Source of the DNA: Solirubrobacteraceae bacterium
Lineage (GTDB): Bacteria; Actinomycetota; Thermoleophilia; Solirubrobacterales; Solirubrobacteraceae
Assembly (NCBI GenBank): GCA_029263125.1
Contig: JAJCYD010000017.1
Coordinates: forward strand, 62,001 to 126,000
DNA length: 64,000 nucleotides
Reading direction: 5' to 3'
Shown: positions 1 to 10,551 of the stretch, piece by piece
Layout: every line of letters starts with the position of its first letter
How positions within the stretch are numbered: position 1 is the stretch's first letter
The notes under the pieces: generated by a model
The model's input: only the letters and a program-made list of their open reading frames with translations
Databases searched by the model: none
What the model was told of the DNA's origin: nothing
Program-made: the position numbers and the translations under genes

Positions 1-2977
1 CCGCCAGCATGTCCTCCAGGGGCGGACCGGTCTCGAGCTGTCCGTCGAGGCGTCGGTAGAGGTACTGCTCAAGGCCCATCAGCGCACTGGCCAGCGCTCG
101 CGGCACCCGCGCGTCGCCGCGGTGCCAGTGCATCACATTGCTGTTGCCCTGCAGCGTGTGCCACTCCCCGTCGAGCAGGATCTCGAAAGCAGCGCCGAGA
201 TCGAGGTCGTCGACGTCGGCCATGTCCGTGTCGGCCCAAGCAGCGGTGGCGTGATCGGCGATCTTGAGCAGAGTCGGTACCGCCACCTCTGGGGCGTGCG
301 TAAACAGCGCCAGCAGCGGACCGTTCTCAGGCAGCGGCGCCTGGCGGGTGATGCGGGTGCCGATCCCGAAGCCCGGCTCCAGCCCCAGATAGCGCTGTTC
401 GCCCGGCTCTCGAAGCAGGCCGACCATCACCAGCTCCGCCGCCGCCTGCGGATGGCGCAGCATCATGGGCACCAGCGGAGTAGGCGCCATCAGCGCCTCG
501 CGCAGCGCGTCGCTGTCCATCCGCCCCCAACCGTCCGCCGCGGGGTCTGCGTTCAAGGCCGCCGTGACGAAGCTCGCCACCTCGTCCGGCAGTTCAGCGC
601 CGGCCGCCAGGAACGCATTCCACAGCTTGTCGCGCTGATCGTCGTCCAGGCGAATGTGGTTGGCGTGGGCGTCGGCGGCGAACTGGCCCGCGGCGAAGCC
701 CAGTCGGGCGGCCTCCTCTCGTCCTGGATAGGCAGTGGGAGCAACCTTCAGCCATAGCTCGGCCATGGCTGCGGTAGCCAGCGGGGCCGCGGCCGCCACC
801 TCATCGCTGCGTGAAGCGAGGGCTCGCAGCACGGGAGGCCACAGCACCCAGGTCGGCAGTCGCCAGAGGGCGGCCATGGCGACCTGAAGATGGTGGTCGC
901 CGCCCTGGGTCAGGAGGGCGGCGCGCGGGTCGGGCACGCTCCCGCTGAGCATGAAGCGGTTGAGCATGCGGGGCAGCAGGGCTTGATCGCCCTCTAGCAG
1001 GATTTGCCAAAGGGCTTCAACGCGATCGGCTGCGTCGGCGGCGAAAAGCGGGGCGTCGAGGTAGAGGTCGGCCGCGATCTCATGTCCCGACTCGCGCAAG
1101 TCGTTGTGCTGCTCGAGCCAGTGCTCGACGCCCTCTTCGCGCAGGATGCGTAAGGCAAAGAGCCGGATGGCCCGATGCCACAGGGGCCGCGTCTCCTGCT
1201 CGCTGATGGTGGCCCGGGCGCCAGGCCAGATACCGAGGCTCTTGAAGCGCGACCAATCCCCGAACAGGTCGTGAGCAAAGCCGTAGGCGTCCTCCTCCGG
1301 CGCCAACGCCTCCTCGCCGCGCAGGTCGTCGATGACGGTGGCGTAGGCGGAGAGCCCGGCCGTGTCGAGTTGCCCGGCGGGCAGAGCCTCGACTAGATGC
1401 TCAGCCGTCCAGGCGGCCAAACCCCGAAGAAACTCGCCGCGCGCGGCGCGTCCGGCCGTGGTTCCAAGCGCAAGTTGGTTCCACCACAGCTCTGCCACTC
1501 CGGCCTCATCGCGGAGGTCCGCCACTGCCGCCTGCTCAGCGCCGCCCATGGCTTCGAGCACCACCTGCAGCAGCTTGGGGCGCCTCAGGACCTCGCGCAG
1601 CGAACCCTGAAAGACCAACTGGTGCAGCTCTTGGCGCTGTTCCAAGACCAATCGGATGTCGTCGTCATCGAGGTCGTCCATGACCACGGTGCTGGGCGTG
1701 GGTGCGTTGCTCTGAGCCATCAGCTGAGATACCCGTCCCACCGCGAAAGACTGACTGGTGACCAGGACCTGCAGCGCGCCGCCGCTTTCGGCGGCGGCAG
1801 ACGCTAGCGCGGCGCCCGCGGCGTGAGCAGCCGGGTCGTAACTGCGGTCCAGCCCGTCGACGACCACCCTGATTGGGGCATGGCCCAGCTCCAGCACATC
1901 CGCCAGGGCGAACCGCAGCCCCAGGCGGTTGCCGAAGCCAAGCAGTCCGTCGCCCAGGTCGCGGGGGCTGAGCCAGAGCTGGCTTGGGGCGGACCGCAGC
2001 CATGCCTTGGCGAGCGCGCTCTTGCCACAACCGGACGGTCCGGTCAGAAAGATGAACGTCGCTGCCGCGACCCCGGCGAGCTGCGCGTGAGCGCTGGTGC
2101 GGGGAAGATGGAGGCCGTCGACGAGTACATCGCGCACAGCGTTCACACGCTCGGTGGTGTGTTGCTCCAGCACCGCCCAATCCGGCGCTGCATCAGCGCG
2201 GCGGGCCAAGGCGAACTCAGCACCCAACTCCCGCTGCGCCCGCGCCCAGGTGATGGACCCGCCCGAGGGCCGAGTCCGAGCCACCAGCTGCAGCACAGCG
2301 TTGTAGAGGTCGTCCGCGCGTGCGGCATGCCCGGTGGACAGGGCGGCCTCACACCAGCTGCGAGCTTGCGCCTCAGCGCTTGAGTCCGCTGAGCGAAAGT
2401 CGAGATGCAGCGGTACCAGCCTTGAGATCAGTGTCGCAGGCGAGGCGTTGCCATTCGGGCCGTGCTGGGTGGCGAGCGCCTGCGGGCACCTGAAGGCCTC
2501 CCACAGCTGCCTGTCGGTGGCGTTGAAGTTGCCGGGGATTGCGATCCGTTCAGCCATCCGCTCCGGCGTGTCGTTTCTGACCGTTTCGATGAGCTCAAGC
2601 AGGCTGGTCCAGTCGTCGCCGGACGTCTGGCCGCAGATGAAGCCCAGGTAGTCGCGACCGAAGTCGAATTGCGGCGAGAGCGCGTGCTCCCAGGCCGCTA
2701 CCACGAAGTCGACCAAGGCCGTCGCCAGCAGGTCGAAGGCCTTAATGGAAGACCACCAGCTGGGCCCGTCGCCGCGAATGACCAGGTCATCCAGTGGACT
2801 GGGAGGCACCTTCTGCTGGAACTCCACAGCGCGCGGGACACCCAGCCCCGCTCCCACCGGCGCCTGCCCCGCCAGCATGGCCGCCAAGACCCACGCGCCC
2901 GCCCGATCCTCGAAGGAGAATCCTCCGCCGCCTGTCGTGAAGGCCGGGCTGACACGCTGCGGATCGGGCTCAGTCAC
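1..2977 (-). CDS. Large nuclease/P-loop NTPase (STAND-like), 3' end beyond window
   Basis: The reading frame stays open from GTG at 2977 to base 1, at least 992 codons, so the C-terminus lies outside the window. A TGA lies in frame just upstream and a weak GAGG precedes the GTG. The N-terminus has a GGGGFSFEDRAGAWVLA block (residues 16-32), then LDDLVI (62-67) and SIK (77-79), which I read as a possible PD-(D/E)xK-like nuclease fold of the kind joined to antiviral STAND ATPases. Walker A GPSGCGKS is at about 313-320 and a Walker B-like VVVDGLD near 371-377. The rest is helical and leucine/alanine rich, like a repeat sensor. A defence role is inference. The frame, the P-loop and the N-terminal block are seen directly. 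Confidence 0.7.
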   Translation of the reverse strand, partial: MTEPDPQRVSPAFTTGGGGFSFEDRAGAWVLAAMLAGQAPVGAGLGVPRAVEFQQKVPPSPLDDLVIRGDGPSWWSSIKAFDLLATALVDFVVAAWEHALSPQFDFGRDYLGFICGQTSGDDWTSLLELIETVRNDTPERMAERIAIPGNFNATDRQLWEAFRCPQALATQHGPNGNASPATLISRLVPLHLDFRSADSSAEAQARSWCEAALSTGHAARADDLYNAVLQLVARTRPSGGSITWARAQRELGAEFALARRADAAPDWAVLEQHTTERVNAVRDVLVDGLHLPRTSAHAQLAGVAAATFIFLTGPSGCGKSALAKAWLRSAPSQLWLSPRDLGDGLLGFGNRLGLRFALADVLELGHAPIRVVVDGLDRSYDPAAHAAGAALASAAAESGGALQVLVTSQSFAVGRVSQLMAQSNAPTPSTVVMDDLDDDDIRLVLEQRQELHQLVFQGSLREVLRRPKLLQVVLEAMGGAEQAAVADLRDEAGVAELWWNQLALGTTAGRAARGEFLRGLAAWTAEHLVEALPAGQLDTAGLSAYATVIDDLRGEEALAPEEDAYGFAHDLFGDWSRFKSLGIWPGARATISEQETRPLWHRAIRLFALRILREEGVEHWLEQHNDLRESGHEIAADLYLDAPLFAADAADRVEALWQILLEGDQALLPRMLNRFMLSGSVPDPRAALLTQGGDHHLQVAMAALWRLPTWVLWPPVLRALASRSDEVAAAAPLATAAMAELWLKVAPTAYPGREEAARLGFAAGQFAADAHANHIRLDDDQRDKLWNAFLAAGAELPDEVASFVTAALNADPAADGWGRMDSDALREALMAPTPLVPMMLRHPQAAAELVMVGLLREPGEQRYLGLEPGFGIGTRITRQAPLPENGPLLALFTHAPEVAVPTLLKIADHATAAWADTDMADVDDLDLGAAFEILLDGEWHTLQGNSNVMHWHRGDARVPRALASALMGLEQYLYRRLDGQLETGPPLEDMLA

Positions 2978-3654: not shown

Positions 3655-4866
3655 TCAGTGGCTGACGGCGGCGGCCGCCGCCTCGGACACGAGCGAGTCG
3701 GTGTAGAAGCGCTCCAGCGCGAAGGGCTCGATCAGCTGCGGCGTGCGGCCGGTCGCGATCAGCTCGGCCAGCGTCGTGCCGACGATCGGCGTGGCCTTGA
3801 AGCCGTAGGTCCCCCAGCCGGCGCTGACGACGAATCCGTCGACGTCGGTGAGGCCGAGGATCGGGCTGTAGTCGGGGCTGACATCGCACAGGCCCGCCCA
3901 GCTGCGCAGGACGTTGGCGTGCTCGAGCTGCGGGAAGAGCTCGAGCGTGTGGCGGGTGGCTTCCTGCAGGAAGTTCAGCGTGCCGTTCATGCGATAGGTC
4001 GTCCACGGCTCGATCTCGGCGCCGACGAGGATCTCGCCGCGGTCGGTCTGGGAGATGTAGACGTGCATCTGCGAGGAGACGATCACGACGTCCAGCAGCG
4101 GCTTCAGCGGCTCGGTCACGAACGCCTGCAGGATGTGCGTCGTGATCGGCAGCCGCACCCCGACCATGTCGGCGACGAGCGTGCTCCAGCCTGCCGTCGC
4201 GTTGACGACGGTGCCGGCCGCGACGCGACCGCGGTTGGTCTGCACCGCGCTCACCCGGCCGCCGGAGGTCTCGATGCCGGTCACCTCGGTGTAGGGGTGG
4301 ATCTCAGCGCCGCCGCGGTCGGCGGCGCGCGCGTAGCCCCAGACGACGGCGTCGTGGCGGATGATGCCGCCGGGCGGGTGATACAGCGCGCCCATGATCG
4401 GATAGGTCGCGTCGCCGCGCACCTGCATCTCGGGCGCCAGCGCCTGCACCTCGTCGGGACCGATGAAGCGGCTGTCGATGCCCAGCAGCCGGTTGACCTC
4501 GGCGCGCTCGCGCATGACGAACACCGAGCGGTCGGTGTGCGCGAGCGTCAGATGCCCGTTCTGGGAGAAGAGCAGGTTGAAGTCCAGCTCGGAGGCGAGC
4601 TGCTCGTAGAGCTTGACGCTGGCGTCGTAGAAGCGCGCACCCTCCGGCGTGCGGTAGTTGGAGCGCAGGATCGTCGTGTTGCGACCGGCCGCTCCCGAGC
4701 CGATGTAGTTGCGCTCGAGCACCGCGACGTTCGTGATGCCCCGCTTGGAGAGCTCGTAGGCCGTGGCCAGACCGTGGGCGCCGCCGCCGACGATGACGAC
4801 GTCGTAGGAGGACCGCAGCTCACCGCGCGGGCGCCACATCCGGTGGCGTCGCAGCAGGTCACGCAT
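3655..4866 (-). CDS. soxB: Sarcosine oxidase beta subunit
   Basis: 403-residue FAD-dependent oxidoreductase of the DAO superfamily, the catalytic subunit of heterotetrameric sarcosine oxidase, which oxidatively demethylates sarcosine to glycine and passes the one-carbon unit to tetrahydrofolate on the alpha subunit. The dinucleotide-binding GGGAHGLATAYEL motif lies at about 27-39. GGIIRHDAVVWGYA carries His171, which aligns with the histidine that covalently holds FMN in characterised enzymes. The start ATG overlaps the end of soxG by 8 bases, so the two are translationally coupled. It is the last gene of the operon; many genomes place soxB first. The cytoplasmic location follows from the lack of a signal peptide. 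Confidence 0.93.
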   Translation of the reverse strand: MRDLLRRHRMWRPRGELRSSYDVVIVGGGAHGLATAYELSKRGITNVAVLERNYIGSGAAGRNTTILRSNYRTPEGARFYDASVKLYEQLASELDFNLLFSQNGHLTLAHTDRSVFVMRERAEVNRLLGIDSRFIGPDEVQALAPEMQVRGDATYPIMGALYHPPGGIIRHDAVVWGYARAADRGGAEIHPYTEVTGIETSGGRVSAVQTNRGRVAAGTVVNATAGWSTLVADMVGVRLPITTHILQAFVTEPLKPLLDVVIVSSQMHVYISQTDRGEILVGAEIEPWTTYRMNGTLNFLQEATRHTLELFPQLEHANVLRSWAGLCDVSPDYSPILGLTDVDGFVVSAGWGTYGFKATPIVGTTLAELIATGRTPQLIEPFALERFYTDSLVSEAAAAAVSH

Positions 4867-5575
4867 CGAGCGCCTCGATCGCGTCGCTGCCGGCGAACAC
4901 GGCTGACAGCGGCTCGCCCGCGTCGGCCATGACGGTCCAGACGTACTCCGCCTGGGCGGCTCCGAACAGCACCAGGAAGCCGCTGTCGCGCTCGTGCAGG
5001 ACGACCGCCGGCACGCGCGCGACCGAGCCCGGCAGCAGCGCGCCGACCGGCGCCTCGCGGGCGCGCAGATCCAGCGCGGTCAGCGTCGCGAGCAGGTCCC
5101 GCGCGCGCGGACCGACGACGAGGACCGCTGCCATTCCGGCGCTGACGTCGACGACCGAGGCGAAGTCCAGCGCGCCCGCGGCCTCTTCGAGGCGGTCGTG
5201 CAGCGCCGCGACCCGCGACGGCGGCGCGACGACCAGCAGCCGCCGCGCGGTCAGCGGACACCACCAGCACCCGTCGCCGTCGCGGCGCGCCCGGCCGAGC
5301 TGCAGCGGACCGCCCGCCAGGGTGGCGATGTGCTGGGCGGCGGCCTGCACCTCGATCGTCGCAAGCCATGAGCGATCGGAGATCGCCACGCCGCAGCGCG
5401 CCGCCTGGACCTCGTCGGCGACGGCGCCAAACCGTGTCGCGACGTTCCACCCGTCGCGCACCTCAAAGCTCGCTCCGGCCCTCACGAGCTCGTGCTCGAC
5501 CGGGCTTCGCGCCAGCGGCATCTGTCCCGCGTGCGACCGCGCCAGATGGGGGCTGAGGAACGCTGGGCTAGCCAC
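4859..5575 (-). CDS. soxG: Sarcosine oxidase gamma subunit
   Basis: 238-residue gamma subunit with the GcvT-like fold of the family. The core runs from RSPVEHELV to the FGAAQAEYVWTVM region. The gamma subunit packs against alpha and helps form the folate/channel face; it has no catalytic residues of its own. The GTG at 5575 overlaps the soxA stop (GTGGCTAG). An internal ATG at 5521 would give 220 residues, closer to the usual 200, so the start is uncertain by 18 codons. Its place between soxA and soxB, with overlaps at both ends, supports the assignment more than its weakly conserved sequence does. Confidence 0.85.
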   Translation of the reverse strand: MASPAFLSPHLARSHAGQMPLARSPVEHELVRAGASFEVRDGWNVATRFGAVADEVQAARCGVAISDRSWLATIEVQAAAQHIATLAGGPLQLGRARRDGDGCWWCPLTARRLLVVAPPSRVAALHDRLEEAAGALDFASVVDVSAGMAAVLVVGPRARDLLATLTALDLRAREAPVGALLPGSVARVPAVVLHERDSGFLVLFGAAQAEYVWTVMADAGEPLSAVFAGSDAIEALDA

Positions 5576-8432
5576 GCTGGCGCTCGTTGTCGGGATCGTA
5601 GAACGCGCCGCGCACGACCTCGGCGCTGTAGTGGCGGCCCTCGTCGACGATCGCGATCTGCGATCCGGCGTCGCGCAGCGCGGTCGGCACCCACGCCAGC
5701 CCGATCGCGTGCCCGAGGCGCTCGCTGTGGCGGGCGCTCGTGACGCGACCGACCGGCGCGCCATCGACGACGACGGCGGCGCCCTCGTGCGGCACCGCCC
5801 CGTTGGACATGCGGAAGCCGACGAGCGTCTCGGCGTGCGCGCGCTCGGCGGCGAGCTCGAGCGCCCAGCGCCCGACGAAGTCCTCCTCCTTGTCGAGCTT
5901 GACGATCCACCCCATCGACGCCGAGTAGGCATTGGATTCCCCGTCGGTGTCCTGCCCGACGATGACATGCCCCTTCTGCAGGCGCAGAACGCGCTGGGCC
6001 TCCAGCCCGAACGGCCGGATGGCGTCCTGCGCCCCCGCCTGCGCGATCGCGTCCCACAGCGCCTGCCCGTGGGCGGCGGGAGCGTGGATCTCATAGCCGA
6101 GCTCTCCGACGAAGCCGATTCGCAGGACGAGCGCGGGGATCCCGGCGACGTGCGCCTGGCGCCCGTCGAGGTAGCCGAAGGCGTCGGGCGAGCAGTCCAT
6201 GTCGGTCAGGCGCTGCAGGATCGCGCGAGCGCGCGGGCCGGCGACGTTGACGGCCGCCAGCGTCTGGGTGAGGTCGGTGATGTGCGCGTCCAGGTCCCAG
6301 TCGGCCATCCACCACGAGAACCACTCCTCGACGGCGCCAGCGCCGCTGGAGGTCGTCGTGACGTAGAAGCTGTCCTCGTCGAGGCCGAAGACCGTGCCGT
6401 CGTCCATGATTCGGCCGGCGTCGGAGTTCAGCACGCCGTAGCGAAGCCGCCCGACCTTGAGGTTCGACAGGCGGTTGGGATACAGGCGGTCCAGCAGCTG
6501 GCCGGCCTGCGGCCCGCGCACGAGCAGCTTGCCCAGCGATGAGAGGTCGATGATCCCGGCGGCGTCGTGAACCGCGCGCACCTCCAGTGCCGGATCGCCG
6601 TAGTCATAGGGCCGCCGCCAGTCGCCGGCCCACATGACGTTGGCGCCAAGCGCGCGATGGCGCGCATGGATCGACGAACGCTTGGCGGGTTCAAACGGCC
6701 GGCCGGCGAGCACGCCCATCGCCACCGGCGTCCACGGCGGGCGGGCGGTCGTCTGGCCGACGGCCGGCGCGTCGACGCCGGTCTGGCGTGCGACGGCGCG
6801 GATCGCAGCGAGCTGACACATGCGCCCCTGACAGGGCCCCATCGTGACCGTCGTGTAGCGCTTGGACAGCTCGATCGAGTCATAGCCCTCGGCGACGCTG
6901 TAGGCGATGTCCTTGTCGGTCACGTCCTCGCACAGGCAGACGAAGGCCTTGCCGTCCGCGGCTGCGCCACAGAACGTGGGAGTCACCGCCGGCGTCGCCG
7001 GCCGCGCGAGCATGCGGTCAAGCTCGGTCTGCTCGCCGGCGATGCGGGAGTGCAGCGCTTCGTCCTCGCCCGCGCCGGCGGCGATCGCCGCGCGGGCGCC
7101 CGCGAGCGCACCGGACAGCTCGATCGCCTCGTCGCCGTCGATGCCCGCGAGCTCGCCGGCGGCCTGCACGTGCGCCGGGGTCTCGCCGGGCAGGAACTGG
7201 CCGCTGTGAGGCTCGAAGGCCATCGCCGTTCCGGCCTGCGCCAGCAGCGACGTCGCGGGAGCCGAGCCGCCGGAGACGACGAGCAGGTCGCAGTGCACTA
7301 CCCGCTCACCGCCGCGATCGGCGACGCGCGCAACCGTCACCCGTTGCACGGCGTCGTCGCCGCAGGCGCCGACGACCATCGCGCCCGTCATCACCTCGAT
7401 GCCGTGCTCAGCCAGTGAATCGGCCAGCGCCGTGACGGGCTCGCTGCGCTCGTCAACGACGAGCGCGATCGGCACGCCGGCCGCGTGCAGCGCGAGCGCG
7501 GCCCGCAGCCCGCGGTCGCCGGTCGTCGCGACGACCGCACGCGAACCGGGGCGCACGCCGTAGAGCGCGGTGAGCCGGAGGGCGCCGTCGGACGTCATGA
7601 CGCCGGGCAGGTCGTTGCCGGCGAACACCAGCGGCTGATCGATCGTCCCGGTCGCGGCGACGTGCGCCCGTGCGCGGATCTGATGCAGCACGCCGCCCCG
7701 GCGAACCGGGACGAGGCCGTCGTAGTAGCCCAGCGCCGAGGCGCCCGTCAGGATCTCGACCCCGTGACCCCGCGCGGCGCTCGCCAGCGACCGGGCACGC
7801 TCGTGGGAGCCCTCGTGCAGCAGCCTGCCGCCGGCCTCGGCGCCGTCGTCGACGAGCACGACGTCCGCGCCCAGCTCGGCGGCCGCGACCGCGGCCGACA
7901 GGCCGGCGAGGCCGCCGCCGATCACGAGGACGTCGGCGTGCCGGCGCCGGTAGGAGGTGCGCCATTCGCGCTCGTCGCGCCTGGTGAGCTTGCCCAGGCC
8001 GGCGATGCGCCGCAGGCCCCACTCGAACAGCGGCCACAGGCGGCGCGGACGGATCATCGTCTTGTAGTAGAAGCCCGGCGGCGTGAACGGCCCGCCGACC
8101 TTGTCGACCGCGCGCATGACGTCGCGCTCCAGCGAGGGCCAGGCGTTGAGGTGCTCGACGGCCATCCCGCTGCGCAGCGGCTCGGTGCACGCGCGCACGC
8201 CGGGGCGCCCGTCGACCGCGACCAGGCAGTTCGCGCAGGCGCCGCTGCAGCACAGCAGGCCGCGCGGGCGGTGGTACTTGAAGCTGCGCGAGAACACGCG
8301 CCGCCCGCCGGCGAACAGCGCCGAGGCGATCGTGTCGCCCTCGAACCCCTCGACGCGCTCGCCGTCGAAGCTGAAGCGCAGCGGCGAGCGGCGGTCGATC
8401 CGCTCGCCGGGCTGGGGCTCCAGCCGCGTCAC
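5568..8432 (-). CDS. soxA: Sarcosine oxidase alpha subunit
   Basis: 954-residue alpha subunit. Domains in order: an N-terminal ferredoxin-like segment with FKYHRPRGLLCCSGACANCL (about 50-70); a Rossmann NAD-binding domain with VIGGGLAGLSAA; a cysteine-rich BFD-like segment (VCLCEDVTDKDI, then GPCQGRMCQ); and a C-terminal aminomethyltransferase (GcvT) domain that binds tetrahydrofolate and forms 5,10-methylene-THF. I chose the GTG at 8432 because it overlaps the soxD stop as GTGA and gives the normal family length. A longer frame back to 8552 reads through soxD and is low complexity. The order soxD-soxA-soxG-soxB is tightly overlapped throughout. Confidence 0.94.
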   Translation of the reverse strand: MTRLEPQPGERIDRRSPLRFSFDGERVEGFEGDTIASALFAGGRRVFSRSFKYHRPRGLLCCSGACANCLVAVDGRPGVRACTEPLRSGMAVEHLNAWPSLERDVMRAVDKVGGPFTPPGFYYKTMIRPRRLWPLFEWGLRRIAGLGKLTRRDEREWRTSYRRRHADVLVIGGGLAGLSAAVAAAELGADVVLVDDGAEAGGRLLHEGSHERARSLASAARGHGVEILTGASALGYYDGLVPVRRGGVLHQIRARAHVAATGTIDQPLVFAGNDLPGVMTSDGALRLTALYGVRPGSRAVVATTGDRGLRAALALHAAGVPIALVVDERSEPVTALADSLAEHGIEVMTGAMVVGACGDDAVQRVTVARVADRGGERVVHCDLLVVSGGSAPATSLLAQAGTAMAFEPHSGQFLPGETPAHVQAAGELAGIDGDEAIELSGALAGARAAIAAGAGEDEALHSRIAGEQTELDRMLARPATPAVTPTFCGAAADGKAFVCLCEDVTDKDIAYSVAEGYDSIELSKRYTTVTMGPCQGRMCQLAAIRAVARQTGVDAPAVGQTTARPPWTPVAMGVLAGRPFEPAKRSSIHARHRALGANVMWAGDWRRPYDYGDPALEVRAVHDAAGIIDLSSLGKLLVRGPQAGQLLDRLYPNRLSNLKVGRLRYGVLNSDAGRIMDDGTVFGLDEDSFYVTTTSSGAGAVEEWFSWWMADWDLDAHITDLTQTLAAVNVAGPRARAILQRLTDMDCSPDAFGYLDGRQAHVAGIPALVLRIGFVGELGYEIHAPAAHGQALWDAIAQAGAQDAIRPFGLEAQRVLRLQKGHVIVGQDTDGESNAYSASMGWIVKLDKEEDFVGRWALELAAERAHAETLVGFRMSNGAVPHEGAAVVVDGAPVGRVTSARHSERLGHAIGLAWVPTALRDAGSQIAIVDEGRHYSAEVVRGAFYDPDNERQRG

Positions 8433-8710
8433 GCAGCGCCCTCGCCGCGGTCGGCGACGTCCTCGGGCAGCGCGGTCCAGCTGACGAGGTTGGAGGTCGT
8501 GTCGCGCTGGGCGATGAACCAGGCGCGACAGCCCGAGCGGTGATGCCACCACTCCAGCTGGGCACCCGCGGCGTTGCGGCGCATGTAGACGTAGGTGTGC
8601 AGCTCGCGCTCAGACGGGCGCGAGCGCGGCCGCGCGGTCAGCTCGCCGCCGAAGGCGAAATCCGTGACCTCGCGCGGGCCGCAGTTGGGGCACTGCAGGA
8701 CGAAGGACAC
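8429..8710 (-). CDS. soxD: Sarcosine oxidase delta subunit
   Basis: 93-residue zinc-binding delta subunit. CPNC (residues 7-10) and a later HHRSGCRAWF segment supply the typical zinc ligands, and REVTDFAFGGE and YVYMRRN are family hallmarks. The start is GTG at 8710. No clear Shine-Dalgarno is visible, and the region where one should sit is taken up by a 10-bp inverted repeat (8715-8742). The stop overlaps the soxA start by 4 bases. It is the first of the four subunit genes, 29 bases downstream of the methyltransferase fusion. Confidence 0.92.
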   Translation of the reverse strand: MSFVLQCPNCGPREVTDFAFGGELTARPRSRPSERELHTYVYMRRNAAGAQLEWWHHRSGCRAWFIAQRDTTSNLVSWTALPEDVADRGEGAA

Positions 8711-8714
8711 GCGC

Positions 8715-8742
8715 TAGTGGGCCATCCAGTAGTGGCCCACTA
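8715..8742. promoter_or_regulatory. Perfect 10-bp inverted repeat before soxD
   Basis: TAGTGGGCCA (8715-8724) and TGGCCCACTA (8733-8742) are perfect inverted copies around an 8-base loop. The hairpin contains the stop codon of the methyltransferase fusion and ends a few bases before the soxD GTG. It lacks a U-tract, so it is not a classical terminator. It could stabilise mRNA, limit read-through, or occlude soxD initiation. Confidence 0.6.
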
Positions 8743-10551
8743 CGGCCCGTCCGCCGCGTGCGTGATCTCCAGGATGTAGGCCACCATCACGTCCTCGTCG
8801 GAGAAGGTGAGGTGATAGGCGTCGGATTGGTCCTCGACGCGCTCGATCTGCGACTGGGCGGCCTTGAAGACGTCGCCGAAGGCAAAGAAGCTGAAGTCGA
8901 CGACCCGTGCGCGCAGGCCGCGCTCGCGCAGCAGCTGGTCGGTCCAGCGCTGGCTGAGGATCGACAGCTGCATGATGTAGGCGACGCCGCCCGCGGCGAG
9001 CGTCGCCGGCAGCAGCGAGATGAGGTGGTCGACGAGGTTGCGCCCCCAGTAGTCCAGCGGACGGTGGGTCACCGTCTGCTCGTAGGGGTCGACGGGCATC
9101 TGGTACAGGCTCGCCACGATGACGTCGTAGCGCTCCTCGGGCACCCACAAGAAGAGGTCGACGTCGCTGCCGCTGACACGATCGGCGACACCGTTGCGAA
9201 ACGCGTTGGCCAGCGTGTTGGCGACCGCCGCGCGGTCAAGGTCGATCGCGTGGACATGGGTGGCGTCGTTGAGCGCGAGCTGGACGGCGAGGATCCCCGC
9301 GCCGCAGCCGATGTCCAGGCAGCGTTTGCCCGCGCCGACGCGCCCGGAGAAGAGGTGCTTCCAGACGAGGAAGCTGCCCTGCGTGGGCACGAAGACGTCG
9401 GGCTCGCAGATGATCTCGGGAACCTCGAGCGGGTACAGCAGGCGCCCGCCGTCGTTGCGCCATGGCTGCGGGGGGACGGGGACCTCGAGCTTCAGCGGCC
9501 GCGTCGATGCGCGCGGCAGCTGCGGCCGTCGAACGGGATCGGGCTTGGCATCGGCCAGCACGAGCTGCGCGGCGGCGATGTGCGCGGGCGTCACGCCGCA
9601 GCAGCCGCCGATGATCTGCGCGCCCTCCTCGCGCCAGCCCAGCGCGGTGGCCGCGAACTCCGCCGGTCCGATGTCCTGGTCGGACTTCCAGCCCGCCTGC
9701 GTGTAGTAGCCGAGATTCGGATAGACGCCGAGCGGCAGGTCGGTGAAATCGCGCATCCACGAGACCATCCCGGGGACGTGGTCGGGCGGCAGGCAGTTGA
9801 TCAGCAGCGCGCCGACGCCCATCTGCTCGAAGCGGTGCGCGGCACGGCCGAAGGCGTCGCCCTCCGGGCCGCCCCAGTGCTGGCCGTGGACGCCGCAGAC
9901 CCCGAGCCGGCAGCGGCGGAAGCTCAGCCACACCGGCAGGCCAGTGCGCAGCAGGCTCTCGACGGCGGCGAACGTCACGTCGTCGCGGATGAGCGACAGC
10001 GTCTCGACGAGCAGCAGATCCGGACGGTCGTACTCAAACGCGCGCCCCAGCAGGTCCAGCGTCTCCACGCGACCGGGATCGAAGGCGTCGGGACCCAGGC
10101 TGAAGGCCAGCGCGACGTCGTCGCGCTCGTGCTGCGCGATCGCCTCGCGCCCGAGCTGGATCCCGCGGCGGGCGGCGTCCATCCAGTGCAGCGGCCTGGC
10201 GGACCCCATGAGCGCCTGGTCGACGAGGCCGGGATCGCCGAACAGCCCCCAGGTGTTCGTCGTCAGCACGTGGCATGCCGCGTCCAGGTAGCGGCGGTGA
10301 AGGTCCATGACCGCCTCGGGGGCGTTATAGAGCGCGCGCGTGCCCCAGATGCGCTCGTCGTCATGGCTGCCCGACATCGGCAGCGCCGCGTCGAGCTCGG
10401 TCCCCATGGCACCATCCAGGACGACGCAGCGCTGCGAGGCGAGCATGCTCTCGATGCGCGCGTAGGGCTCCGCGGACACCGGCCCGACCTGGTCCACGGA
10501 GCTCATCCGTGGGCCGCCGGCAACGGGCGTGAGATTGCACGTTCTCGGCAT
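8740..10551 (-). CDS. Homocysteine S-methyltransferase / class I SAM methyltransferase fusion
   Basis: 603 residues with two domains. The N-terminal half (about 40-330) is a zinc-dependent homocysteine S-methyltransferase barrel with LDGAMGTEL near the start, NCLPPDHV and GGCCG, which supply the three zinc cysteines. The C-terminal part (about 390-600) is a Rossmann methyltransferase with motif I LDIGCGAGILAVQLAL, nearest in look to PrmA/PrmC-type enzymes. A betaine:homocysteine methyltransferase here would yield dimethylglycine, two steps above sarcosine, which suits its place ahead of soxDAGB; this is inference. The substrate of the second domain is unknown. ATG at 10506 is an alternative start that removes 15 weakly supported residues. 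Confidence 0.8.
   Translation of the reverse strand: MPRTCNLTPVAGGPRMSSVDQVGPVSAEPYARIESMLASQRCVVLDGAMGTELDAALPMSGSHDDERIWGTRALYNAPEAVMDLHRRYLDAACHVLTTNTWGLFGDPGLVDQALMGSARPLHWMDAARRGIQLGREAIAQHERDDVALAFSLGPDAFDPGRVETLDLLGRAFEYDRPDLLLVETLSLIRDDVTFAAVESLLRTGLPVWLSFRRCRLGVCGVHGQHWGGPEGDAFGRAAHRFEQMGVGALLINCLPPDHVPGMVSWMRDFTDLPLGVYPNLGYYTQAGWKSDQDIGPAEFAATALGWREEGAQIIGGCCGVTPAHIAAAQLVLADAKPDPVRRPQLPRASTRPLKLEVPVPPQPWRNDGGRLLYPLEVPEIICEPDVFVPTQGSFLVWKHLFSGRVGAGKRCLDIGCGAGILAVQLALNDATHVHAIDLDRAAVANTLANAFRNGVADRVSGSDVDLFLWVPEERYDVIVASLYQMPVDPYEQTVTHRPLDYWGRNLVDHLISLLPATLAAGGVAYIMQLSILSQRWTDQLLRERGLRARVVDFSFFAFGDVFKAAQSQIERVEDQSDAYHLTFSDEDVMVAYILEITHAADGP

What the first reader, a model, noticed from the sequence alone, without database searches (positions are those of the whole stretch)
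8740..10551. Two unlike methyltransferases in one chain
The N-terminal domain keeps all three zinc cysteines; the C-terminal domain has its own SAM motif (DIGCGAG). A thiol methyl acceptor joined to a SAM-dependent enzyme could couple methionine synthesis and SAM use. I know of no well-characterised protein with this architecture.
Basis: partly seen in the sequence, partly recalled or inferred. Interest (0 to 1): 0.55.

Follow-up and report, generated by a model that had tools for sequence, protein, structure and literature searches.

The report
Two methyl-transfer enzymes in one protein
A soil bacterium and relatives from several phyla carry one protein that joins a zinc enzyme of the kind that makes methionine to an enzyme of the kind that spends methionine's activated form, and its gene often sits beside genes that recycle that activated form or strip methyl groups from betaine-like compounds; the exact substrates are not known.

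Summary
ORF 8740-10551 (-) encodes PF02574 (residues 43-328) followed by a class I SAM methyltransferase (about 380-565). It is no assembly join: of 56 loci found across 84,980 genomes, 50 are full-length fusions and 6 run off contig ends. Zinc cysteines are complete in 49 of 52 fusions and the SAM motif in 52 of 52; the exceptions, all Opitutales, lost zinc ligands.

The C-terminal domain is HemK2/N6AMT1-like, but the NPPY motif is gone (0 of 52 fusions; 13 of 13 stand-alone relatives have it), so its acceptor has changed. The N-terminal domain is nearest to MmuM.

Context supports coupling: 13 of 58 loci have MetK, SAH hydrolase or a PfkB kinase nearby, some abutting; 20 of 58 have betaine or sarcosine genes. 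In the window a sarcosine-oxidase-like soxDAGB set follows.

Best reading: the N domain methylates homocysteine from an onium donor, and the C domain spends SAM on a small acceptor, within demethylation or SAM-cycle operons. Donor, acceptor and activity are untested. Nine paper searches found no report of this architecture.

The parts
8740..10551 (-). fusion ORF, 603 aa as called; likely start ATG at 10506 (588 aa)
   Evidence: homologues begin at or after this Met
9568..10425 (-). N-terminal homocysteine S-methyltransferase domain (PF02574), residues 43-328
   Evidence: E 1.3e-39; fold matches MetH, MmuM and BHMT
10345..10347 (-). W69, in the place of MmuM's LW tryptophan; W in 51 of 52 fusions
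9868..9918 (-). fusion-specific loop RRCxxGxCxVxGxHWGG (C214, C219, H225), 52 of 52 fusions, 0 of 10 other PF02574 proteins compared
9793..9795 (-). zinc ligand C253 (N-C motif)
   Evidence: sequence, 49 of 52
9598..9603 (-). zinc ligands C317 and C318 (GGCCG)
   Evidence: sequence, 50 and 49 of 52
9427..9525 (-). variable linker between the domains (about residues 343-375)
   Evidence: low conservation; pLDDT under 50 at residues 327-340 of the model, which starts at M16 of the ORF
8869..9414 (-). C-terminal class I SAM-dependent methyltransferase domain, about residues 380-561
9295..9315 (-). SAM motif I DIGCGAG, residues 413-419
   Evidence: sequence
9094..9111 (-). SLYQMP in the place of the NPPY acceptor motif, residues 481-486
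9040..9054 (-). DYWGR motif, residues 500-504, D[YF]WGR in 52 of 52 fusions
8429..8710 (-). small ORF in the position of a sarcosine oxidase delta subunit (assigned by position only, no HMM run)
5568..8552 (-). sarcosine oxidase alpha-like subunit (SoxA; true start probably near 8435)
   Evidence: TIGR01372, 758 bits, below its cut-off of 1164
4859..5540 (-). sarcosine oxidase gamma-like subunit (SoxG; start approximate, within frame 4859-6094)
3655..4866 (-). sarcosine oxidase beta-like subunit (SoxB)
   Evidence: TIGR01373, 446 bits, below its cut-off of 529

Best explanation
It is a bifunctional enzyme of the methionine/SAM cycle. The N-terminal zinc barrel activates a thiol, most likely homocysteine, and takes a methyl group from a small onium compound (sulfonium or quaternary ammonium) rather than from folate. 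[quoted passage not shown] The chain thus holds both the methyl-in step (homocysteine to methionine) and the methyl-out step (SAM to SAH); MetK, SAH hydrolase and a PfkB kinase (presumably an adenosine kinase) close the loop. In betaine/sarcosine operons, such as the one in the window, this would allow demethylation to run without piling up methionine: methyl groups moved onto homocysteine leave via SAM onto an amine that the sarcosine-oxidase-like enzyme can oxidise. Shown here: both domains with intact motifs, conserved fusion, loss of NPPY, gene context. Inferred: homocysteine as thiol, onium donor, small acceptor, direction of flux.
For: Domains and motifs. The fusion is conserved, and N and C parts evolve together (pairwise identities correlate, r 0.71; 0 of 2000 permutations reach it). 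The N domain's profile ranks MmuM first in the PDB, and it shares W69 with MmuM and one MmuM-like protein, which the BMT, YitJ, MetH and HMT2 proteins compared lack. There are no folate or cobalamin domains. NPPY is absent in 52 of 52 fusions and present in 13 of 13 stand-alone relatives. Context: 13 of 58 loci have MetK, PfkB or SahH within 11 kb; 20 of 58 have betaine or sarcosine markers; 13 of 58 have formate dehydrogenase or PurU; 32 of 58 have either of the first two kinds. L084 has fusion-MetK-PfkB-Sox in a row. Within 299 genomes of the class, a SoxA match occurs in 21 of 25 fusion genomes against 47 of 274 others, and a BHMT-like HMT2 in 11 of 25 against 9 of 274. The window's genome has HMT2, a DAO-family oxidase and an IclR regulator about 13 kb from the fusion, three metK matches and SAH hydrolase.
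Against: No biochemistry exists. A separate BHMT-like gene (HMT2) often accompanies the fusion, so the N domain is probably not the main betaine enzyme. Twenty-six of 58 loci show neither kind of context, though several are short contigs. Three Opitutales lack zinc cysteines. The Fisher tests ignore shared ancestry. The domain arrangement in the model is not reliable (pTM 0.54).
Confidence: 0.5

Rival explanations
1. A whole S-methylmethionine (SMM) cycle in one chain: the C domain methylates methionine with SAM to SMM, the N domain uses SMM to turn homocysteine into methionine, as plant MMT and HMT do as separate enzymes. It would buffer the SAM/methionine ratio.
For: The N domain is nearest to MmuM, an SMM-using enzyme. 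MmtN, a methionine S-methyltransferase, is among the best Foldseek matches of the C domain (7vvx rank 3, E 2.7e-11, TMq 0.61, the highest TMq of the 50 rows). PMC9135737 (passages read) predicts an SMM cycle where mmtN and HMT genes are neighbours. MetK, SahH and PfkB neighbours fit.
Against: By VIA-align N6AMT1 is closer (Z 20.8 against 16.4). MmtN is not among the 60 of 64 sequence-profile hits shown. An SMM cycle does not explain Sox, betaine transport and formate dehydrogenase neighbours, and moves no methyl group out.
Confidence: 0.2
2. The C domain binds SAM as a sensor and tunes the N domain's methionine synthesis, without methyl transfer of its own.
For: The NPPY motif is lost; the domains are always joined.
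Against: A complete SAM motif and invariant new residues (Q484, P486, D500, W502, G503, R504; 52 of 52) look like a new acceptor site. In three Opitutales the domain that would be regulated is damaged while the C domain is kept.
Confidence: 0.1
3. The N domain is mainly a scaffold: its loop (RRC..C..H) helps build the C domain's acceptor site, and zinc chemistry is secondary.
For: The loop is invariant in 52 of 52, including the three Opitutales without a full zinc site.
Against: The zinc Cys are kept in 49 of 52, over several phyla. The loop has low model confidence, so contact is unproven.
Confidence: 0.12
4. An assembly join of two neighbouring genes.
For: The related records are metagenome-assembled genomes (titles).
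Against: 50 full-length fusions in separate records and a paralogue in the same genome.
Confidence: 0.01

Closest known systems
MmuM / HMT (homocysteine S-methyltransferase, PF02574)
   Same: Barrel fold, three zinc Cys, LW tryptophan; best PDB profile hit (5dml, E 2e-23)
   Different: Below the NCBIfam cut-off for PRK09485 (106 against 215 bits); extra RRC..C..H loop; fused to a SAM methyltransferase
YitJ-type homocysteine methyltransferase / methylene-THF reductase fusion (PRK08645)
   Same: PF02574 domain fused to a second one-carbon enzyme
   Different: The partner is a folate reductase, not a SAM methyltransferase; 80 bits against a cut-off of 453
Methionine synthase MetH
   Same: N-terminal homocysteine domain; top structural match of the N domain (3bof, Z 30.5)
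   Different: No folate or cobalamin domain
Betaine-homocysteine methyltransferase (BHMT, Bmt)
   Same: PF02574 and neighbourhood with betaine or sarcosine genes
   Different: 49.5 bits against a cut-off of 338; a separate BHMT-like HMT2 is present nearby in several loci
HemK2/N6AMT1 and PRK14968 methyltransferases
   Same: Closest fold (Z 20.8) and closest family of the C domain
   Different: NPPY replaced by SLYQMP; DYWGR motif new
MmtN (methionine S-methyltransferase)
   Same: Foldseek E 2.7e-11, TMq 0.61
   Different: No sequence-level link found; stand-alone and trimeric (PMC9135737, passages)
Plant S-methylmethionine cycle (MMT plus HMT)
   Same: The same pair of activities under rival 1
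   Different: Separate enzymes in plants (PMC9135737, passages)

Membership tests
PF02574 homocysteine S-methyltransferase | match to the family model over the domain | tested here: met
   137 bits against a cut-off of 22
PF02574 homocysteine S-methyltransferase | three zinc-binding cysteines | tested here: met
   window has all three; 49 of 52 fusions
PF02574 homocysteine S-methyltransferase | methylation of homocysteine | not testable with these tools
   needs an assay
MmuM (PRK09485 equivalog) | score over the curated cut-off | tested here: not met
   106.3 against 215
BHMT (PRK07534 equivalog) | score over the curated cut-off | tested here: not met
   49.5 against 338
MetH | folate- and cobalamin-binding domains | tested here: not met
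   no such Pfam hit
Class I SAM-dependent methyltransferase | motif I and acidic ribose residue | tested here: met
   D413, G415, G417, G419, D437 in 52 of 52; fold
HemK/PrmC/N6AMT1 | NPPY motif | tested here: not met
   0 of 52 fusions; 13 of 13 stand-alone relatives have it
MmtN / MMT | methionine-binding residues and activity | tested here: inconclusive
   fold match only; no residue-level alignment available
Activated methyl cycle operon | linkage to metK, SAH hydrolase and a nucleoside-type kinase | tested here: met
   13 of 58 loci; SahH by Pfam in L037; PfkB family only, adenosine kinase not shown; not seen directly beside the window's copy

The most novel reading that the evidence does not exclude
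One chain works as a methyl shuttle for aerobic demethylation: the N domain loads methyl groups from an onium compound onto homocysteine, MetK turns the methionine into SAM, and the C domain discharges SAM onto glycine or a like amine, so that the sarcosine-oxidase-like enzyme and formate genes can burn the methyl group. This would be a bacterial counterpart of the liver's BHMT plus glycine N-methyltransferase (recalled), fused into one protein.
Probability: 0.2. Interest if true: 0.75.

Novelty: new variant of a known kind. Interest (0 to 1): 0.5.

Why it matters
If the coupling is real, it names an enzyme for an awkward step in growth on betaine by the homocysteine route: what becomes of the methionine that is made. 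It would also give a single protein in which methyl entry to and exit from the SAM cycle are physically joined, useful for engineered methylation. It adds function to Thermoleophilia, Rubrobacteraceae and Gemmatimonadota, groups with few cultured members.

Tried and rejected
Assembly join: rejected. BHMT identity of the N domain: rejected as a membership claim, and a separate BHMT-like gene exists. Folate-dependent MetH-type function: no folate or cobalamin domain. HemK-type glutamine or adenine methylation by the C domain: unlikely, NPPY lost. MmtN by sequence: not among the rows of a profile search (60 of 64 shown), nor of one with the second half of the C domain (7 rows, best E 0.24, six of them N6AMT1). 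Plasmid tblastn gave 604 records but none covering 80% of the query. Domain interface from the model: not used, pTM 0.54. Paper searches gave no report of this architecture. PMC9135737 and PMC12366255 were read as passages only. PMC7857596 was seen as a listing and abstract start only.

Limits: in the class surveys only the best candidates of a first look were scored (at most 9 per genome, 2, 6). Neighbour genes come from ORFs chosen by cross-locus similarity, not from a gene caller, and cluster names rest on one or two annotated members each; cluster 1 (ABC ATPases) was left out of the counts as too mixed. The cut-off for a 'fusion genome' was a C-terminal score over 320 bits: 25 of the 37 genomes listed with a match; the other 12 have only the stand-alone relatives (75-99 bits). 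Of the 56 loci, 50 went into alignment A2 with the window and L002. The NPPY comparison used 13 stand-alone C-domain relatives out of those fetched. The PF02574 comparison used 10 non-fusion proteins and 15 fusions.

Full report
What is there. The ORF at 8740-10551 on the minus strand is real. It has 603 codons as called, but homologues suggest a start at ATG 10506, 588 aa. Pfam finds PF02574 at residues 43-328 and SAM-methyltransferase models over about 392-505. The zinc cysteines are C253, C317 and C318. The SAM motif DIGCGAG is at 413-419.

It is a conserved fusion, not a join. A scan of one genome for each of 84,980 species returned 56 loci. Fifty are full-length fusions and six are cut by contig ends. 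Record titles name Solirubrobacterales, Gaiellaceae, Rubrobacteraceae, Euzebyales, Gemmatimonadota, Latescibacterota, Chloroflexi, Poribacteria, Planctomycetota, Opitutales and a proteobacterium; all are metagenome assemblies, so single labels may be wrong. The window's own genome has a second copy, 52% identical. In 299 genomes of the class, 25 hold the fusion-type C domain (over 320 bits, 28 matches). Twenty-five of those matches lie in frames of 582 aa or more, and the other three are at contig ends. Pairwise identities of N and C parts correlate at r 0.71 over 1326 pairs, with 0 of 2000 permutations as high, as expected if the halves descend together.

Catalytic residues. In 52 aligned fusions all three zinc Cys occur in 49, and the SAM residues in 52. 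The exceptions are L067, L068 and L074, the three Opitutales: two or three zinc Cys are replaced, while the SAM site and the loop RRCxxGxCxVxGxHWGG are kept. That loop is in 52 of 52 fusions and in 0 of 10 other PF02574 proteins compared. It follows a predicted barrel strand (192-196 of the model), but its model confidence is low, so I leave its role open.

The N domain. Its profile finds E. coli MmuM first in the PDB (E 2e-23), then Thermotoga MetH. Structurally, MetH, BHMT and MmuM all match (Z 25-30). In a comparison with ten relatives, the fusion shares a tryptophan (W69, 51 of 52) with MmuM and an Agrobacterium MmuM-like protein, while BMT, YitJ, MetH and HMT2 have none in that place. MmuM uses S-methylmethionine (PMC12366255, passages). 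This favours a small onium donor. It is an inference.

The C domain. All 14 members scanned hit PRK14968, PrmA and HemK-like models. The modelled domain (pLDDT 88, pTM 0.87) is nearest to N6AMT1/HemK2 by VIA-align (Z 20.8, rmsd 2.4, 185 aligned). By Foldseek, MitM, MmtN and N6AMT1 are nearly tied at the top, and MmtN has the highest TM-score on the query side of the 50 rows (0.61). Thirteen of 13 stand-alone relatives carry NPPY; none of 52 fusions do. The fusions have SLYQMP-like residues and D[YF]WGR instead. So the acceptor probably differs from the glutamine or base of the parent family.

Neighbours. In the window the next genes on the same strand are a sarcosine-oxidase-like set (soxD by position, soxA, soxG, soxB). 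About 13 kb further lie a BHMT-like gene (HMT2), a DAO-family oxidase and an IclR regulator. Elsewhere there are two kinds of context. One is SAM-cycle genes: L043 has fusion-metK-pfkB-purU with shared or abutting ends; L036, L044, L047 and L084 have metK directly after the fusion; L056 has metK-pfkB-sahH-fusion; L037 has sahH-fusion. The other is betaine or sarcosine genes: OsmF/ProVW-type transporter, HMT2, DAO, Sox, often with formate dehydrogenase. Counts within 11 kb: 13 of 58 SAM-cycle, 20 of 58 betaine or sarcosine, one of 58 both (L084), 26 of 58 neither. The paralogue's contig carries a pfkB and one of three metK matches of the genome.

Association across genomes. SoxA matches occur in 21 of 25 fusion genomes and 47 of 274 others (odds ratio 25, p 1e-11). 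HMT2 occurs in 11 of 25 and 9 of 274 (p 1e-8). Shared ancestry inflates both.

Mechanism. I take the protein to hold the methyl-in and methyl-out steps of the methionine/SAM cycle. Motifs, fusion and context are shown. Homocysteine as thiol, an onium donor and a small acceptor are inferred. In betaine operons the homocysteine route makes one methionine per betaine; something must spend SAM to regenerate homocysteine, and a small-amine methyltransferase next to a sarcosine oxidase would do so. Against this stand the separate HMT2 gene, the 26 loci without such context, and the Opitutales. The one-chain SMM cycle is the main rival: MmuM-like N domain, MmtN among the fold matches, and a published prediction of SMM cycles in other prokaryotes (PMC9135737, passages). 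It does not explain Sox and formate genes.

Novelty. Each domain is of a known kind; the pairing was found in no paper by nine full-text searches of open-access papers, which miss most subscription journals. I rate it a new variant of a known kind.

Noticed in passing
L101 (G000:C32:1825-5205): The window genome's one near-full-length MetH homologue has an in-frame TAG at about codon 362, and no MetE match was found; methionine may depend on other routes, or it is an assembly error.
   Followed up: partly
L072:7798-9903, L073:7774-9879, L002:1-1386: Beside the paralogue type lies another fusion: about 400 residues without a Pfam match (no credible PDB match either for the one tested), then a SAM methyltransferase. 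A motif HLCYGD recalls MetE-like zinc sites (recalled, not tested).
   Followed up: partly
L067, L068, L074 (Opitutales): The fusion has lost zinc cysteines but kept the SAM site and the loop motif; neighbours include a fumarylacetoacetate-hydrolase-like gene.
   Followed up: partly
G000:C18, C25, C45: Three metK matches in one 3.75-Mb genome, one of them on the paralogue's contig.
   Followed up: no
window 2-2977 (L112:11941-16977): A 1678-aa ORF on the minus strand beside the sox set; the stretch GPSGCGKS suggests an NTPase; not annotated here.
   Followed up: no
L042, L045, L046, L049: Four near-identical gene orders in Gemmatimonadota and Latescibacterota records: formate dehydrogenase-like genes, fusion, two SDRs, an N,N-dimethylformamidase-beta-like protein, HMT2, a TPP enzyme, DAO; perhaps breakdown of some other N-methyl compound.
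   Followed up: no
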